Shown here piece after piece: positions 30,334 through 36,768 of a stretch of DNA of 56,232 nt (positions are counted from its first letter, which is position 1; every line of letters starts with the position of its first letter). The DNA comes from a bacterium (GTDB lineage: Bacteria; CAIWAD01), in assembly GCA_030685015.1 (NCBI GenBank), contig JAUXWS010000054.1, positions 1-56,232 of the forward strand. The letters run 5' to 3'. The notes under the pieces are model-generated. The model ran no database searches and was not told the DNA's origin. It saw only the letters and a list, made by a program, of their open reading frames with translations. A program made the translations under genes and the position numbers.

Positions 30334-30714
30334 CTACTCAATGCGGCGCTTGAGGCCACAGTGCCGGCTCATCTCGTCCTCGGCCTCCGGCGCGCTCGGT
30401 GCGTTGTGCAGAATCAGGCGACGCAAATGCTCCAGTGATTCCGCGCCGCGAATGCCCAGGAATTCCACTCCCACACCATCCGCATCCGCCCGGACGACCC
30501 GACCCGAGATCTCCACGCGAACGGCCTGGGGACCTTCACCCAGCACCAGACAGAGCTCGCAGTTCTCGCCCTGCTGGATCTGATCCAGGTGCGACACGCG
30601 GACGCCACGCAAACTGAGATCCTGCGTGCAGGCCCGGACTTCCAGTCTGTCGCCGCCGCTCAACAGAATGTCGATGCTCAGTGGCACCCGGGTGAATTCT
30701 CGTCGTTCGCTCAT
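30334..30714 (-). CDS. PilZ domain protein (c-di-GMP receptor)
   Basis: 126 residues from the ATG at 30714, two bases after the cheR stop. The two c-di-GMP contacts of PilZ are intact: RxxxR in RREFTRVPLS and DxSxxG in TQDLSLRGV, with the C-terminal strand VGVEFLGIRG. As the final gene of the chemosensory operon it should be made together with CheA and CheR. It probably modulates motility or a chemosensory output in response to c-di-GMP. A short tail (EAEDEMSRHCGLKRRIE) follows the domain. Confidence 0.9.
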   Translation of the reverse strand: MSERREFTRVPLSIDILLSGGDRLEVRACTQDLSLRGVRVSHLDQIQQGENCELCLVLGEGPQAVRVEISGRVVRADADGVGVEFLGIRGAESLEHLRRLILHNAPSAPEAEDEMSRHCGLKRRIE

Positions 30715-30716
30715 GT

Positions 30717-31541
30717 TCACCGCCGAATTCGATAGTAAACGGTCTTGCCCGTTTGGACCCGCTCCCATGCCTCGTCCAGGTTGAGCGTGGTTTCGGCCCC
30801 ACCCAGAAACAGCACGCCCTCGGGCTTCATCACACTCCGTGCCCGTTTGAGGATCTGACGCTTCGTCTCCAGGTCGAAGTAGATGAGCACGTTGCGCAGG
30901 AAGAGGAAGTCAACGCCGCTCTGGACCGGCCAGGAGCCGGCCAGATTCAGCTCGTGGAACTGGATCATGTCGCGCAGCTCCTCCTTGATCTGCCACGAGG
31001 CGCCTTCCTTTCGGAAGTGCTTCACCAGCATGGGAGCCGGCAAACCCCGATTGACCTCCAACTGGCTGAAGAGTCCCTCCTTCGCCCGCCTCAGCATCTC
31101 GCGGGAAATGTCGCCGGCCAGCAGGTTGACCCGCCACCCGCTCCGCAGCTGGGGGAAGGAGTCGTTGATCAGCATGGCAAGGCTGTATGGCTCCTGGCCG
31201 CTCGAGCAGGCCGCGCACCAGATGGTCAGGTTGCGCGAGCCCTCGTTCCGCCGCATGGCCTGCGGCAGCAACTCCAACCTCATGGTCTCGAATGGGTGCA
31301 GATCGCGGAAGAAGCTGGTCTCATTGGTCGTCATGGCGTCCAGGACCTGGGCGTGGAGCGGACCATGGGCGGAGCTTCGCAGCTTGCGGGCCAGCTCGTC
31401 GACATTGTCGAAACCCTCCATCCGAGCCAGCGTGGAGAGGCGCATCTCGACCAGATACTCCTTGGACTCGTCCAGCACGATGGACGACCGCTCGCGGACC
31501 AGCTGCCGCAGGTAGTCGAACTCCACCCGATTCAGCGCCAT
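30717..31541 (-). CDS. cheR: Chemotaxis protein methyltransferase CheR
   Basis: 274 residues from the ATG at 31541; the start overlaps cheB by 10 bases. SAM-dependent glutamate methylation of chemoreceptors. The CheR N-terminal helical domain (FDYLRQLVRERSSIVLDESKEYLVEMRL) is followed by the Rossmann domain (TIWCAACSSGQEPYSLAM, LLAGDISREMLRRAKEG, DFLFLRNVLIYFD, VLFLGGAETTL). TNETSFFRD is the usual loop. Its presence implies methyl-accepting receptors elsewhere in the genome, as none is encoded here. Confidence 0.96.
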   Translation of the reverse strand: MALNRVEFDYLRQLVRERSSIVLDESKEYLVEMRLSTLARMEGFDNVDELARKLRSSAHGPLHAQVLDAMTTNETSFFRDLHPFETMRLELLPQAMRRNEGSRNLTIWCAACSSGQEPYSLAMLINDSFPQLRSGWRVNLLAGDISREMLRRAKEGLFSQLEVNRGLPAPMLVKHFRKEGASWQIKEELRDMIQFHELNLAGSWPVQSGVDFLFLRNVLIYFDLETKRQILKRARSVMKPEGVLFLGGAETTLNLDEAWERVQTGKTVYYRIRR

Positions 31542-32743
31542 GGCCCGGCCCCCGTGGTGGTCGACCTGTCCCGCCGCAGGCTTTGAAGCAGGTGGGGCGC
31601 CAACTGGTCCAAGGGCAGCACCTGGTCGGCCACGCCCGCATTGCTCACGGCGCCCGGCATGCCCCACACCACGCTGCTCTCCTCATCCTGCGCCAGGACC
31701 AGGCCTCCCCCCTCGCGGATGGCGCGGGCGCCGCGCAGCCCGTCCCGCCCCATCCCGGTCAGGACGACGGCCACCGCAGTGGCGGGGCAGGCCTGCGCCG
31801 CCGACTGGAAGAGCGTGTCGACGGCGGGGCGGCAGGAGTTGACTTGCGGCCCCTGATGCTCTTTCAGCAGCAACTGTCCGCTTTCGCGCGCCACTTCCAT
31901 GTGCCAGTCGCCTTTGGCCACCCAGGCCTCGCCGGGCCGCAGGACGGCGCCGGCCTCGGCCTCGCGGACCTTGAGCTGGCTGTTCTGATCGAGCCGGTCA
32001 GCCAGCATGCGGGTGAAGAGGGGCGGCATGTGCTGCACGATGAGAACGGGGACGGGCAGGTTGCCGGGCAGGGCCGGTATGAAACGGGCCAGGGCGTTGG
32101 GTCCCCCCGTCGAGACGCCGACCACCACCAGCTCCGCGGGTCGCATCAAGTGACGGCCGCTCGGCTGAAAAGGGCGTCGTTCCGGATAGCGCTCCCGGTG
32201 CTGCATCAGTTGGGCCGAGGTGCCCGCACGCTGCAGGGGCGGTGGGCCGACCTGGGCGGGGCCTGAGGTGGATGGTGCTGTCATGTTGGAGCGAAGATCG
32301 CCTCTCGCTGGCTGATCCTGTCCGCGTTCCTCCCGGACGCGGACCAGGGCCCGTACTTTTGGCACAAGGTCCTGGCGCAGCCTTTCCATGCTTTCCATCA
32401 GACTGGTGGCGCCTGCCGGCTTGGTCAGGTAGTCGCTGGCCCCCAGGCTGAGCGCCTCGATCGTGGTGGCGGCCCCCCGACTGGTCAGGGTGGAGAACAT
32501 GATGACGGGCAGGCGAGGGCGCCGGCGCCGGATCTCCACCAGAGTGGCCAAGCCATCCATTTCCGGCATCTCAACGTCCAGGGTCACCAGGTCGGGCGCC
32601 AGGGCATCCAGCTTCTCAAGGGCCAGCCGGCCGTTGGCGGCCTGTCCGGCCACGGCCAAACCCGGCTCTTCCTCGATGACGCGGGTCAGCAGTCGCCGCA
32701 CCACCGACGAATCGTCAATGATGAAGATGCGGATGTCGCCCAT
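31532..32743 (-). CDS. cheB: Chemotaxis response regulator protein-glutamate methylesterase CheB
   Basis: 403 residues. N-terminal receiver (1-120) with acidic pair IIDDSS, phospho-Asp in VTLDVEMPEMDG, and Lys in YLTKPAG. A linker of about 80 residues rich in Pro, Gln and Arg leads to the C-terminal methylesterase (about 205-390). The catalytic Ser is in GVSTGGPNALARF, His in IVQHMPPLFT and Asp in LTGMGRDGLRGARAIREGGG. It deamidates and demethylates receptors for adaptation. The start overlaps the cheY stop (TGATG), and the stop lies inside cheR. Confidence 0.96.
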   Translation of the reverse strand: MGDIRIFIIDDSSVVRRLLTRVIEEEPGLAVAGQAANGRLALEKLDALAPDLVTLDVEMPEMDGLATLVEIRRRRPRLPVIMFSTLTSRGAATTIEALSLGASDYLTKPAGATSLMESMERLRQDLVPKVRALVRVREERGQDQPARGDLRSNMTAPSTSGPAQVGPPPLQRAGTSAQLMQHRERYPERRPFQPSGRHLMRPAELVVVGVSTGGPNALARFIPALPGNLPVPVLIVQHMPPLFTRMLADRLDQNSQLKVREAEAGAVLRPGEAWVAKGDWHMEVARESGQLLLKEHQGPQVNSCRPAVDTLFQSAAQACPATAVAVVLTGMGRDGLRGARAIREGGGLVLAQDEESSVVWGMPGAVSNAGVADQVLPLDQLAPHLLQSLRRDRSTTTGAGPWR

Positions 32744-33114
32744 CAGACCGGATCAATGCCAAGCAAGGCAAGCTTCTCAAGCAGGGCTTCACGGGAGAAG
32801 GGTTTCATGATGTACTCGTCGGCCCCGGCCTCCAGCGCTTCCATCACACTTTCGATCTGGTTGACGGAGGTCACCATCAGCAGTTTCAGCTCGTCCCGCG
32901 TGTAGGATTCCCGCGCAATCCGGATGAATTCGATGCCGTCCATGACCGGCATTTGCCAATCCACCAGGGCAAAATCGAAGGGGCCTTCGCGGGCCAGCGC
33001 CTCCATCGCCTCCCGGCCGTTGGCGGCTTGGGCGTGGGTCACGCCCAACTCGTCCAGCAGACGCGCCAGCAGCAAACGCATGGTGGACGAGTCGTCGATG
33101 ATGAGGGCTTTCAT
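32743..33114 (-). CDS. cheY: Single-domain response regulator (CheY-like), copy 1
   Basis: 123 residues, receiver domain only. Acidic pair in ALIIDDSSTMR, phospho-Asp in FALVDWQMPVMDGIEF, conserved Thr/Ser in LMVTSVN and Lys in YIMKPFS. The Q-M-P-V-M-D-G loop and DEYIMKPFSREALLEKL tail are typical of CheY-type regulators in FCB and deltaproteobacterial clusters. It overlaps the cheW end by four bases (ATGA) and the cheB start. Two CheY copies in one operon suggest one motor-directed regulator and one phosphate sink, but which is which is not visible. Confidence 0.94.
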   Translation of the reverse strand: MKALIIDDSSTMRLLLARLLDELGVTHAQAANGREAMEALAREGPFDFALVDWQMPVMDGIEFIRIARESYTRDELKLLMVTSVNQIESVMEALEAGADEYIMKPFSREALLEKLALLGIDPV

Positions 33115-33569
33115 CCAAGGTCCCGCAACTTGGCATCGGCACCATCCAGCTGCGTGAGGTTCTTCACGTCCAGCAGCAGGAGCAGCTGATTCTCCAGCTT
33201 GTGGGTGCCGGTGATCAGTTCACGCATGCGCCCTTCCAGGGTGTCGGGCGGCGCCTCCCATGTGCTCTCATCCACGCTGACCACGTCGCCCACCTCATCG
33301 ACAAGCAGGCTATGGACCGTCTCGGCATCACGGATGACCACGTTCATGGGCGCCTTGGAATCGTCCCGATCCGGCATCTCCAGGCGCCGGCGCAGGTCGA
33401 TGGCCGTCACGATCTGGCCTCGCAGATTGATCAGGCCGCTGACCACCCGGGGCGCCATGGGCACGGGTGTCATCGACTGGAAGCGGTTCACCTCCTGAAC
33501 GATCTTGACATCCACGCCGAAGAAGAACCCATTGAGGTAGAAGGTGCAGACCTGTTGTTGCTCAGCCAT
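33111..33569 (-). CDS. cheW: Chemotaxis coupling protein CheW
   Basis: 152 residues, a single CheW domain: VCTFYLNGFFFGVDVKIVQEV, VSGLINLRGQIVTAIDLRRRL and HSLLVDEVGDVVSVDES, ending LLLLLDVKNL. It couples chemoreceptors to CheA. It starts only four bases after the cheX stop. With the two CheW domains in CheA, the operon encodes three CheW modules. Confidence 0.95.
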   Translation of the reverse strand: MAEQQQVCTFYLNGFFFGVDVKIVQEVNRFQSMTPVPMAPRVVSGLINLRGQIVTAIDLRRRLEMPDRDDSKAPMNVVIRDAETVHSLLVDEVGDVVSVDESTWEAPPDTLEGRMRELITGTHKLENQLLLLLDVKNLTQLDGADAKLRDLG

Positions 33570-33573
33570 GTCG

Positions 33574-34041
33574 CTACTCCAACTTCATCGTGACTTCCAT
33601 CACGAAGCGATGCTTGCCGATTTCGAAGGGGATGACCATGACCGGGACATCTCCCTTGTGTCCGATGGTGTGCCCCGGCCCCACCACGATCGTGGGAATG
33701 GAGATGTTGAAGGTGATGTTCTCCTTGGAGAGCTCCGTCTTGGCGCCGCCGGCAACGATGTTGGCCAGTTCGCCCACCACATCCTGCACGTCGTTGGTGA
33801 TGCGGTACACCTTCTCGCCCATCATCAGGCTGTAGAACTTCAGCGCCACGGGTGTTGGGAGACTAAGCGCCACTGAACCCGTCACGCACGGTCCGGCGAA
33901 GCCGATGATGGCGGAAATGTCGCCCTGCGTCTGGCCTTCGCGCTTGAAATAGGGGGTGCCACGCTCCGGGGTGATGCTCAGCATCGTTTCCAGGGCATTG
34001 ACCAGGGCCATGACAAAGGGATTGATGTACTTGGCTTCCAT
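33574..34041 (-). CDS. cheX: Chemotaxis phosphatase CheX
   Basis: 155 residues. The CheX fold is seen in INPFVMALVNALETMLSI, GPCVTGSVALSLPTPVALKFY and the CheC/CheX/FliY active-site helix with acidic and Asn residues in DVVGELANIVAGGAKTEL. It dephosphorylates CheY-P, the usual signal-terminating phosphatase in bacteria without CheZ. Located 11 bases after the second cheY gene, its probable substrate. Confidence 0.93.
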   Translation of the reverse strand: MEAKYINPFVMALVNALETMLSITPERGTPYFKREGQTQGDISAIIGFAGPCVTGSVALSLPTPVALKFYSLMMGEKVYRITNDVQDVVGELANIVAGGAKTELSKENITFNISIPTIVVGPGHTIGHKGDVPVMVIPFEIGKHRFVMEVTMKLE

Positions 34042-34052
34042 GTTGGCTTCCC

Positions 34053-34412
34053 CTACTGCTGCATGATCAGTTTGACCTTCTCGCCAAGCACCTCCTTGGT
34101 GAATGGCTTGACGATGTAATCGTTGACGCCGGCGGCGAGGGCTTCCATCACTTCGTCGCGCGCACCCTCAGACGTGATCATGATGATGGGCAGACGGGCC
34201 GTGGCGGGCGCGTCCCGCAAGGTCTTGACCAGTGTCAGACCATCCATGGTGGGCATGTTCCAGTCAGTGAGCAGAAGAGTGACCCCGTCCATGGTTTGCA
34301 GCGCCTGTTGCCCATCTCCCGCCTCGACGATGTCGTCAAACCCAACAGCCCGGAGACTGTTGCAGATGATGCGACGCATGGTAGTGGAATCATCCACGAC
34401 CAGGATTCTCAT
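34053..34412 (-). CDS. cheY: Single-domain response regulator (CheY-like), copy 2
   Basis: 119 residues, canonical CheY: ILVVDDSTTMRRIICNSL, phospho-Asp in LLLTDWNMPTMDGLTLVK, conserved Thr/Ser in IIMITSEGARDEV and Lys in YIVKPFTKEVLGEK. The W-N-M-P-T-M-D-G loop is the form seen in motor-binding CheYs, so this is the better candidate for flagellar switch control. It is sandwiched between cheA and cheX, its likely kinase and phosphatase. Confidence 0.95.
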   Translation of the reverse strand: MRILVVDDSTTMRRIICNSLRAVGFDDIVEAGDGQQALQTMDGVTLLLTDWNMPTMDGLTLVKTLRDAPATARLPIIMITSEGARDEVMEALAAGVNDYIVKPFTKEVLGEKVKLIMQQ

Positions 34413-34449: not shown

Positions 34450-36768
34450 TCAGCCTACCTTGCGGGCCAGCAGCTCCAAATCGAGCATCTCGGTGATGCG
34501 ATCATGCACCACCACGACGCCGGTCACGCCTTCCCGCGTGGCCTCCCGGCGCACGGCGATCTCCTCATGCGCGATGTCCTCGATGCCGTCCACCACCAGG
34601 CCGTAGCTGCTGGATCCATGTCGGTAGACGACCACCTGGAGCATGGCCGTGGCCTCCTGGCCATCTCCGCGGCGCTCCCGGCGTCGCTCCGGCAGATGGT
34701 CGGACGGACGCACGAGCGGCAGGATGCTGCCTCTGTATTGCACCACTTCCTGGGTCCCGGTGCGCTCGATGCGGTCCAAAGGCAGCTCCTCGAGGCGGTC
34801 GACCTGGTCCAGCCGCACGGCCATGTGGCTGTCACCGATCCTGAAGAGGAGCAGGGTCTCACGATCCTCGGCACCCTCCCGTTGGCTCTGCGACAGCTCG
34901 GCCAGGGCTTCGTGGCGGCTCTCGCTGATCACGTGACTCTGCTGGGCCAGGCCCAACACGTCCAGGATGAGGGCCACCGAGCCGTCCCCCATGATGGTGG
35001 CGCCGGCGAAGAGGCGGATATGCTTGAGGGCAGCCCACAAGGGCTTGACGACGATCTCCTCGGTGTCGGTGATTTCGTCGACGATCAAGCCGAATGGTCG
35101 GCCGTCGGCCTGCAGCACGACAATGTTGATACTGCTGTCGTCCGCCGCTCCGGGTTTCCCCAGCTGCGACCGGAGGTTGACCAGCGGCAGCAGGCGGCCG
35201 CGCAAACGGTAGACGGGGGCGCCGTGGATCTGTTCGATGCCCCTGCGCGCCTGTTCGCCTTCCAGGCGGACCAGCTCCAACAGGTTGACCTGTGGCACCG
35301 CGAAGCGCTCGTCGTCGATCTTGACGACAAGGGCTGGAATGATGGCCAGGGTCAGAGGGATCTTGATCTTGAGGATGGAGCCCTGCCCCCGCTCGCTGGT
35401 CATGTCCACCGTGCCGCCGATGCGGGTGATATTGGTCCGCACCACGTCCATGCCGACGCCGCGCCCGGAGACGTTGGAGACCTGCTTGGCCGTTGAAAAG
35501 CCCGGCATGAAGACGAGGTTGACCAAGTCGCGCTCGCTCATCTGGTCGGCCACCTCGGCACTCACCACATGGCGCTCCACCGCCTTGCGCCGGATGGATT
35601 CCGTGTCCAGCCCGGCACCATCGTCGCGGATCTCGATGTTCACCTGTCCGCCCTCGTGGAAGGCCCGCATGTGGATCACGCCCTCCACGGCCTTGCCGGC
35701 GGCCAGCCGATCCTCCGGACTTTCCACGCCATGATCGACCGAGTTGCGGACGATGTGGGTGAGGGGATCCTTGATCGCTTCCAGGATCGTCTTGTCCAGC
35801 TCGGTGTCCTTGCCTTCCGTCTCCAGACGGATCTGCTTGCCGCAGCCGTGGGCCAGGTCGCGCACGATGCGCGGGAACTTGCTCCACACATTGCCGATGG
35901 GCTGCATGCGGGTCTTCATCACCCCCTCCTGCAGCTCCGTCGTGATGATGTTGAGCCGTTGCAGGATGGGATTGAAGCCGGCATCGTCGATGCGGGTGGA
36001 GAACTGCAGCAACTGGTTGCGCACGAGAACCAGCTCTCCGGCCAGATTCATCAGGCGGTCCAGATGGTGGACGTCCACGCGCAATGTGCTGTCGGCCACA
36101 CTGCCCTCGCGTGCCTTGCCCTCCTGCTGCCGGGCCAGGGCGGTGCGGATCGCCTCCGGTTCCACGGCGCCCTTCTCCACCAGAATCTCACCGACATGGC
36201 GCGGATCGCCCTGCGCCTGCTGTCTCAGTGCCTCGTCCAGCTGGTCCTCCCGCGCCACGCCCGTCTCCACCAGGATCTGGCCCATGGCCGGAGTGGGAGT
36301 GGGGGCCGGCGTCCCGCACTCCGCCGCCGGCTCTCTGGCGGACGTGGCGGCGGTCGTGTCCTGCGGCGGGGAAGGCGTGCCCAGGTGGGCGGCCAGGGCC
36401 TGGATGAGCGGGCCGTAGTCCGCCGTGCCTTCGCCCTGGGTGGCCTCGATGGACTTCAACATGACGCGCACCGCGTCGACCATGGCCAACAGGTCGGTGG
36501 TGACCGCCGGATCGAGCGCCTTCCTTCCATCCCGCAACAGGCTGAGGAGGTTCTCACCCGTGTGGGTGAGCCGCTCCAGCTTGCCCAGGCCGAAAAAGCC
36601 GCTGGTTCCCTTGATCGTATGGATGGTGCGGAAGATGTCGGCCAAGACCTCCTTGTTTCCCGGGTCCTCCTCCAGCACCACGAATTGCTGGTCCAAGCGG
36701 TCCAGGTTCTCGTAGCTTTCCACCAGGAACTCGCGAAGGATGTCTTCCATTCCGGCAAATGCGCTCAT
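34450..36768 (-). CDS. cheA: Hybrid chemotaxis histidine kinase CheA with MshEN-like insert and two CheW domains
   Basis: 772 residues. The P1/HPt domain (1-115) has the phospho-accepting His50 in IHTIKGTSGFFG. No ordinary P2 is visible. Instead residues 161-214 contain two 24-residue MshEN-type units (MGQILVETGVAREDQL; VGEILVEKGAVEPEAI) six residues apart. A P3 dimerisation segment (LDRLMNLAGELVLVRNQLLQF) precedes the HATPase (HIVRNSVDHGVESPEDR; DDGAGLD; GRGVGMDVV). Two tandem CheW domains complete the protein (about 505-635 and 645-772). GGGAGAAAAC precedes the ATG. First gene of the che operon. Confidence 0.95.
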   Translation of the reverse strand: MSAFAGMEDILREFLVESYENLDRLDQQFVVLEEDPGNKEVLADIFRTIHTIKGTSGFFGLGKLERLTHTGENLLSLLRDGRKALDPAVTTDLLAMVDAVRVMLKSIEATQGEGTADYGPLIQALAAHLGTPSPPQDTTAATSAREPAAECGTPAPTPTPAMGQILVETGVAREDQLDEALRQQAQGDPRHVGEILVEKGAVEPEAIRTALARQQEGKAREGSVADSTLRVDVHHLDRLMNLAGELVLVRNQLLQFSTRIDDAGFNPILQRLNIITTELQEGVMKTRMQPIGNVWSKFPRIVRDLAHGCGKQIRLETEGKDTELDKTILEAIKDPLTHIVRNSVDHGVESPEDRLAAGKAVEGVIHMRAFHEGGQVNIEIRDDGAGLDTESIRRKAVERHVVSAEVADQMSERDLVNLVFMPGFSTAKQVSNVSGRGVGMDVVRTNITRIGGTVDMTSERGQGSILKIKIPLTLAIIPALVVKIDDERFAVPQVNLLELVRLEGEQARRGIEQIHGAPVYRLRGRLLPLVNLRSQLGKPGAADDSSINIVVLQADGRPFGLIVDEITDTEEIVVKPLWAALKHIRLFAGATIMGDGSVALILDVLGLAQQSHVISESRHEALAELSQSQREGAEDRETLLLFRIGDSHMAVRLDQVDRLEELPLDRIERTGTQEVVQYRGSILPLVRPSDHLPERRRERRGDGQEATAMLQVVVYRHGSSSYGLVVDGIEDIAHEEIAVRREATREGVTGVVVVHDRITEMLDLELLARKVG

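What the first reader, a model, noticed from the sequence alone, without database searches (positions are those of the whole stretch)
35950..36400. CheA carries a two-copy MshEN-like module where P2 is expected, and PilZ closes the same operon
Seen directly: residues 161-214 of CheA contain two 24-residue units of the form xxGxxLVxxG(6)LxxxLxxQ spaced by six residues. Established: MshEN domains of type II secretion ATPases bind c-di-GMP through such paired motifs, and PilZ proteins bind it through RxxxR/DxSxxG, both present at 30334-30714. Inference: the kinase itself may sense c-di-GMP, making a c-di-GMP-gated chemosensory pathway. The first Arg of each MshEN motif is missing (Ala and His here), so binding may be lost or altered.
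Basis: partly seen in the sequence, partly recalled or inferred. Interest (0 to 1): 0.62.

Follow-up and report, generated by a model that had tools for sequence, protein, structure and literature searches.

The report
c-di-GMP-type domain inside chemotaxis kinase
The main chemotaxis kinase of this uncultured bacterium carries a small built-in domain of a type that in other proteins binds the signal molecule c-di-GMP, so swimming control may be tied directly to that signal; the combination was noted once before in the literature, and nobody appears to have tested it.

Summary
CheA (window 34450-36768, - strand, 772 aa) has two 24-residue MshEN-type units at residues 161-184 and 191-214 (window 36127-36288). 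NCBIfam NF053729 ("c-di-GMP_motif, MshE-related") matches at 8.6e-13, above its cut-off; Pfam MshEN (PF05157) does not. AlphaFold gives an autonomous four-helix module between two disordered linkers. Foldseek's best 14 matches are all MshE/PilF/PilB N-domains (5HTL, c-di-GMP-bound, rmsd 1.0-1.1 Å over 54-55 columns).

It does not replace a P2 domain: this CheA family lacks P2 with or without the module (31 of 81 relatives have it; 11 changes on the tree). Gly3 is invariant and the ligand-contacting Gln24 nearly so, while the position-1 Arg varies family-wide. Lacking that Arg does not exclude binding: Thermus PilF GSPII-B binds at 6 nM with Lys/Leu there. But Ala/His is untested, and Ser abolished binding in an engineered PilF domain. 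Operon PilZ is real but confined to this genus.

The genome has one CheA, flagellins, MCPs and GGDEF/HD-GYP genes, so a c-di-GMP-gated flagellar kinase is plausible but undemonstrated. The MshEN-CheA association was mentioned in 2016. Verdict: new member of a known, uncharacterised architecture; moderately interesting.

The parts
34450..36768 (-). cheA, 772 aa: Hpt (P1) 9-101, MshEN module 161-214, dimerisation (P3) 227-286, HATPase (P4) 334-473, two CheW domains (first 479-610, second about 636-772); no P2
36127..36288 (-). MshEN-type module, CheA residues 161-214: two 24-residue units with a six-residue spacer
   Evidence: NF053729 8.6e-13; AF2 four-helix bundle; Foldseek 5htl rmsd 1.0-1.1 A
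36217..36288 (-). unit 1, residues 161-184 (position 1 = Ala161, Gly163, Gln184)
36127..36198 (-). unit 2, residues 191-214 (position 1 = His191, Gly193, Gln214)
34053..34412 (-). cheY (receiver domain only)
   Evidence: Pfam Response_reg 5.1e-26; NCBIfam CheY 2.4e-33
33574..34041 (-). cheX-type CheY-P phosphatase; no MshEN match
   Evidence: Pfam CheX 1.6e-23; NF041094 1.5e-19
33111..33569 (-). cheW
   Evidence: Pfam CheW 3.9e-28
32743..33114 (-). second cheY-type receiver
   Evidence: Pfam Response_reg 1.6e-25
31532..32743 (-). cheB
   Evidence: Pfam CheB_methylest 1.3e-64
30717..31544 (-). cheR
   Evidence: Pfam CheR 5.5e-55
30334..30714 (-). single-domain PilZ protein with REFTR and DLSLRG motifs, start 2 bp after the cheR stop
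   Evidence: Pfam PilZ 3.7e-14; sequence

Best explanation
This is the only CheA of a flagellated bacterium, and the likely kinase of its chemotaxis system. Between P1 and P3 it carries an autonomous MshEN_N four-helix module on two flexible linkers. Most likely the module is a cyclic-dinucleotide (c-di-GMP) receptor. Two c-di-GMP guanines would lie against the paired Gly3/hydrophobic 2-17-21/Gln24 pocket, with His191 perhaps stacking in place of one Arg. Binding would then order the linker or make the module dock on P3/P4, changing how freely P1 reaches the ATP-binding P4 domain, and so kinase output. [quoted passage not shown] Inferred: ligand binding, its sign and the coupling to kinase activity.
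For: The curated c-di-GMP_motif profile matches above cut-off, and matches 23 of the 38 CheA relatives scanned at E <= 0.001. The predicted fold matches c-di-GMP-bound MshE and PilF GSPII-B at about 1 A (VIA Z 8-9). The module is confidently folded (pLDDT about 90) and isolated by linkers with pLDDT under 50 at 132-156 and 222-233. Across 28 CheA modules Gly3 is 28/28 in both units, and Gln24 is 28/28 and 26/28, while its neighbours 22-23 are highly variable (entropy 2.2-3.1 bits). 28 of 33 modules keep the whole contact set in both units. In characterised domains Gln24 is lost in non-binders: both copies in PilF GSPII-A (PMC12002112) and Q61V in XpsE (PMC5013675). Missing arginines are compatible with 6 nM binding in PilF GSPII-B (K/L), and GSPII-C binds with Pro at position 1 of motif II (PMC11731258). 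The N-terminal subdomain alone suffices in MshE (350 nM, PMC11731258). The module is retained in the three sampled genomes of the genus, and against L002 it is 72% identical while the preceding linker is 10%. The genome has 3 GGDEF, 6 HD_5, 2 PilZ, 7 MCP and 4 flagellin matches and one CheA.
Against: No binding data. Position 1 is Ala/His, outside Wang's relaxed [RKPN] and the extended [R/K/L] consensus. In an engineered PilF GSPII-A fragment a Ser at position 1 of motif II removed measurable binding (PMC12002112). Pfam MshEN does not match. The module is patchy in the CheA family: 31 of 81, at least 11 changes on the tree. Fold and motif similarity alone do not show ligand binding. The coupling to kinase activity is pure inference.
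Confidence: 0.5

Rival explanations
1. A non-binding MshEN-fold docking or tethering module: it holds CheY, CheX, CheW or another partner (possibly the operon's PilZ protein) near P1, doing the job that P2 does elsewhere.
For: It sits exactly in the P1-P3 linker of a P2-less CheA. Both Args are missing. MshEN-fold domains that lost c-di-GMP binding do serve as protein docks: X. citri PilB N-domain with PilZ (PMC8389850; structural hits 7lkm-7lko).
Against: Gln24 and Gly3 in both units, which are ligand contacts in MshE, are among the most conserved sites, while many other exposed positions are free. In X. citri PilB the PilZ contact uses mainly the second subdomain ND1, absent here. PilZ is not linked to module presence across the family. 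P2-less relatives without the module are equally common.
Confidence: 0.28
2. A cyclic-dinucleotide receptor with altered specificity or affinity: the Ala/Ser-His version of the pocket binds c-di-GMP weakly or prefers another dinucleotide such as 3',3'-cGAMP.
For: His at unit 2 position 1 occurs in 8 modules, and all 8 (and no other) have a small residue (A/S/N/T) at unit 1 position 1, in four separate branches of the CheA tree. That looks like a co-ordinated pocket version rather than random decay. MshEN_N binds cGAMP weakly (PMC5013675).
Against: Post-hoc observation. Only two independent contrasts are on well-supported branches, too few for a test. Nothing points to a particular alternative ligand.
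Confidence: 0.14
3. A passive remnant: a folded spacer without function in the linker.
For: Patchy presence; relatives work with a low-complexity linker.
Against: Module strongly conserved against its flanking linker (72% versus 10% identity to L002, 54% versus 12% to L003); key residues conserved across several phyla.
Confidence: 0.08

Closest known systems
MshEN_N domain of Vibrio cholerae MshE (PDB 5HTL)
   Same: Two 24-residue units, Gly3, hydrophobic 2/17/21, Gln24; predicted four-helix fold within about 1 A
   Different: Arg9/Arg38 replaced by Ala161/His191; six-residue instead of five-residue spacer; no MshEN_C subdomain (Asp108); in CheA, not an ATPase
[quoted passage not shown]
   Same: c-di-GMP receptors without the full Arg pair (K/L in B, Pro at motif II in C). 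The CheA profile matches a PilF stretch from the start of GSPII-C best among PDB sequences (E=8e-13 for that stretch). GSPII-C has a seven-residue spacer.
   Different: Part of a pilus ATPase; position-1 residues differ from Ala/His
MshEN-CheA fusions noted by Wang et al. 2016 (PMC5013675)
   Same: Same domain combination, listed there among MshEN architectures
   Different: Only mentioned; no member described in the main text, and its supplement could not be read here, so it is unknown whether this CheA family was listed
MapZ-CheR1 (Pseudomonas aeruginosa) and PilZ-bearing chemoreceptors (Cbp1, PMC6454048)
   Same: c-di-GMP input into chemotaxis; here a single-domain PilZ gene directly follows cheR
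   Different: Those act on CheR or receptors, not through a domain inside CheA; the window PilZ had no MapZ hit

Membership tests
MshEN-type domain (NF053729 c-di-GMP_motif) | Curated profile score above cut-off | tested here: met
   47.9 bits against 38 in full CheA; 69.7 bits as fragment; also own-genome scan 52 bits
MshEN-type domain | Four-helix MshEN_N fold | tested here: met
   AF2 helices 162-168, 174-185, 192-198, 204-220; best 14 Foldseek hits all MshE/PilF/PilB
MshEN-type domain | Gly3, hydrophobic 2/17/21 and Gln24 in both units | tested here: met
c-di-GMP-binding MshEN (canonical motif) | Arg (extended: Arg/Lys/Leu) at position 1 of both units | tested here: not met
   Ala161 and His191. 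Hence filed as an MshEN-type domain, not as a proven canonical c-di-GMP receptor.
Pfam MshEN PF05157 | Match above gathering cut-off | tested here: not met
   No match; PF05157 did hit the pilus-type ATPase of the same genome
c-di-GMP receptor | Measured ligand binding | not testable with these tools
   Needs ITC or NMR
CheA | Hpt, dimerisation, HATPase and CheW domains | tested here: met
   Four Pfam families above cut-off
Classical five-domain CheA | P2/CheY-binding domain | tested here: not met
   No P2 match in this or 37 relatives; between P1 and P3 the model shows only a short helix (119-127), the module and linkers
MapZ-type PilZ adaptor | Sequence relation to MapZ and binding to CheR | tested here: inconclusive
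   phmmer against PDB hits other PilZ domains only, not MapZ; CheR binding not testable

The most novel reading that the evidence does not exclude
The sole chemotaxis kinase of a flagellated bacterium is itself a cyclic-dinucleotide receptor through an arginine-free (Ala/Ser-His) version of the MshEN pocket. c-di-GMP would then gate CheA phosphorylation directly, while a PilZ protein from the same operon adds a second c-di-GMP input, for example at CheR.
Probability: 0.35. Interest if true: 0.7.

Novelty: new member of a known kind. Interest (0 to 1): 0.45.

Why it matters
Known routes from c-di-GMP to chemotaxis go through receptors, CheR adaptors or the motor. A receptor domain inside the kinase would be the shortest route, and in this genome the kinase is the only CheA. 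A dedicated survey of CheA architectures (PMC10542144) does not mention MshEN in its main text, although 31 of 81 sequences in the sampled CheA family carry it, so a testable input has been overlooked in many environmental bacteria. Because most CheAs lack P2, this also bears on what the P1-P3 linker does.

Tried and rejected
P2 replacement: rejected as stated, since P2 is absent from the whole family with or without the module. PilZ-module co-evolution: rejected as a general link. PilZ lies near cheA in the window and L002, L003, L009 among module-bearers and in L019 and L062 without it (Fisher p=0.20); the PilZ profile was home-made and some flanks are short, so this is a rough count. MshEN in the operon's CheX (a fusion noted by Wang 2016): NF053729 did not hit it. 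Literature search for c-di-GMP binding by CheA found nothing. Window-wide Rfam scan: no RNA family. A regex survey mis-parsed L041, L067 and L075; corrected by hand.

Full report
Anatomy. CheA is encoded at window 34450-36768 on the - strand (772 aa). Pfam finds Hpt 9-101, the dimerisation domain 227-286, HATPase 334-473 and two CheW domains, and no P2. Residues 161-214 are two 24-residue units, AMGQILVETGVAREDQLDEALRQQ and HVGEILVEKGAVEPEAIRTALARQ, with the six-residue spacer AQGDPR; in DNA 36127-36288. The operon continues cheY, cheX, cheW, cheY, cheB, cheR, pilZ; pilZ starts 2 bp after the cheR stop. The genome (3.6 Mb, 97% complete) has one CheA-type dimerisation domain, 7 MCP (22), 4 flagellin (24), 3 GGDEF (19), 6 HD_5 (25) and 2 PilZ (23) matches. 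The c-di-GMP_motif profile NF053729 has one other match in the genome besides CheA, in a 594-aa pilus-type ATPase.

Identity of the module. NCBIfam NF053729 (cyclic di-GMP-binding domain-containing protein, MshE-related) matches residues 162-214 at 8.6e-13, above its curated cut-off. The Pfam MshEN model PF05157 does not match. A profile made from 28 CheA modules finds, among all PDB sequences, PilF, PilB and MshE N-domains, with E from 6e-25 (PilF) to 2.6e-8 (5htl). AlphaFold2 on the fragment gives four helices, pLDDT about 84 in the core. On the whole protein the module has pLDDT about 90 between linkers under 50 at 132-156 and 222-233. Foldseek ranks 5htl first (rmsd 1.0-1.1 A over 54-55 columns, probability 1.00) and its first 14 hits are all MshE, PilF or PilB N-domains; E-values are only 0.04 and above because the domain is short. 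VIA-align gives Z 8-9 to c-di-GMP-bound PilF GSPII-B and MshE; for a helical bundle that Z alone would be weak, but it agrees with the sequence evidence.

Family survey. Eighty relatives were fetched. With the window, 31 of 81 have the module at the same place; the rest have a proline/alanine-rich or acidic linker (corrected). On a tree of the P3-P5 core, module presence needs at least 11 changes (many branches poorly supported), so it is gained, lost or exchanged often. Carriers lie in Acidobacteriota, Planctomycetota, Gemmatimonadota, Actinomycetota, Armatimonadota and the window's own group. No family member scanned has a P2 match, in line with the published finding that over half of CheAs lack P2 (PMC10542144).

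Does it bind c-di-GMP? In MshE the ligand is held by the amides of Gly3 and the next residue, the hydrophobic residues 2, 17 and 21, Gln24, and by stacking of Arg1 (PMC5013675). In the 28 aligned CheA modules Gly3 is invariant in both units and Gln24 is 28/28 and 26/28, whereas the adjacent positions 22 and 23 vary freely. 28 of 33 modules (two of them from the four-unit CheA of G004) keep the whole contact set in both units. Gln24 is lost in both motifs of the non-binding PilF GSPII-A (PMC12002112) and in motif II of non-binding XpsE (PMC5013675). Position 1 is the exception: 12 of 33 modules have Arg/Lys at both, and the window has Ala and His. This does not settle the matter. PilF GSPII-B binds at 6 nM with Lys and Leu, and its K167R and L196R substitutions weaken binding; GSPII-C binds with Pro at position 1 of motif II (PMC11731258). 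Against that, Ser at position 1 of motif II removed measurable binding in an engineered GSPII-A fragment (PMC12002112). I put about one in two on real c-di-GMP regulation in this protein.

A sub-pattern. All eight modules with His at position 1 of unit 2 have Ala, Ser, Asn or Thr at position 1 of unit 1, and no other module does. On a CheA tree these fall in four separate places, and both traits change together each time, but only two contrasts rest on well-supported branches, too few for a test. This suggests a second, co-ordinated version of the pocket rather than decay; it was seen after the fact and needs a larger survey.

PilZ. The PilZ protein is genuine and has both motifs. PilZ near cheA is seen in the window's genus (window, L002, L003), in L009 among other module-bearers, and in L019 and L062 without the module. 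The association is not significant. Its place right behind cheR is reminiscent of MapZ, which acts on CheR1, but sequence search did not return MapZ. The X. citri PilB-PilZ complex shows that an MshEN-fold protein can dock PilZ, but mainly through the second subdomain ND1 (PMC8389850), which is absent here.

Mechanism, inferred. The module would sit on flexible tethers between the phosphodonor P1 and the dimer core. A ligand-dependent change in its shape or contacts could alter P1 access to P4 and so kinase output. The direction is unknown.

Novelty. Wang et al. 2016 already list CheA among proteins that carry MshEN, in one sentence, and NCBIfam annotates the motif, so the kind is known. I found no experimental study, and the CheA architecture survey does not mention MshEN in its main text. 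Supplements could not be read.

Noticed in passing
L115:9934-12798 (+), genome G004 of the same family: A different-lineage CheA (954 aa, two Hpt stretches by Pfam, one CheW) with four MshEN units, i.e. two modules in tandem, in its P1-P3 linker (NF053729 6.6e-18). MshEN units entered CheA linkers more than once, or multiplied there.
   Followed up: partly
window residues 161 and 191 of CheA; L002, L003, L004, L011, L024, L029, L031: Small residue (A/S/N/T) at position 1 of unit 1 and His at position 1 of unit 2 always occur together, in four tree branches; possible second version of the ligand pocket.
   Followed up: partly
G000:C75:19179-19589 (L082): The genome's other MshEN protein is a 594-aa pilus/secretion-type ATPase with Lys at position 1 of both units (KIGEILVRKG, KLGQVMLDLN) and, by eye, Asn instead of Gln at the end of motif I.
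   Followed up: no
window 34450-34860: CheA has a second CheW domain at its C-terminus; a duplicated CheW is reported for F5-class CheAs (PMC10542144). The chemosensory class was not determined.
   Followed up: no
L003 (DYSB01000007.1): The record is titled Acetofilamentum sp. (Bacteroidota), yet its CheA is 74% identical to the window's and the locus has the same operon with PilZ; the label is probably wrong.
   Followed up: no
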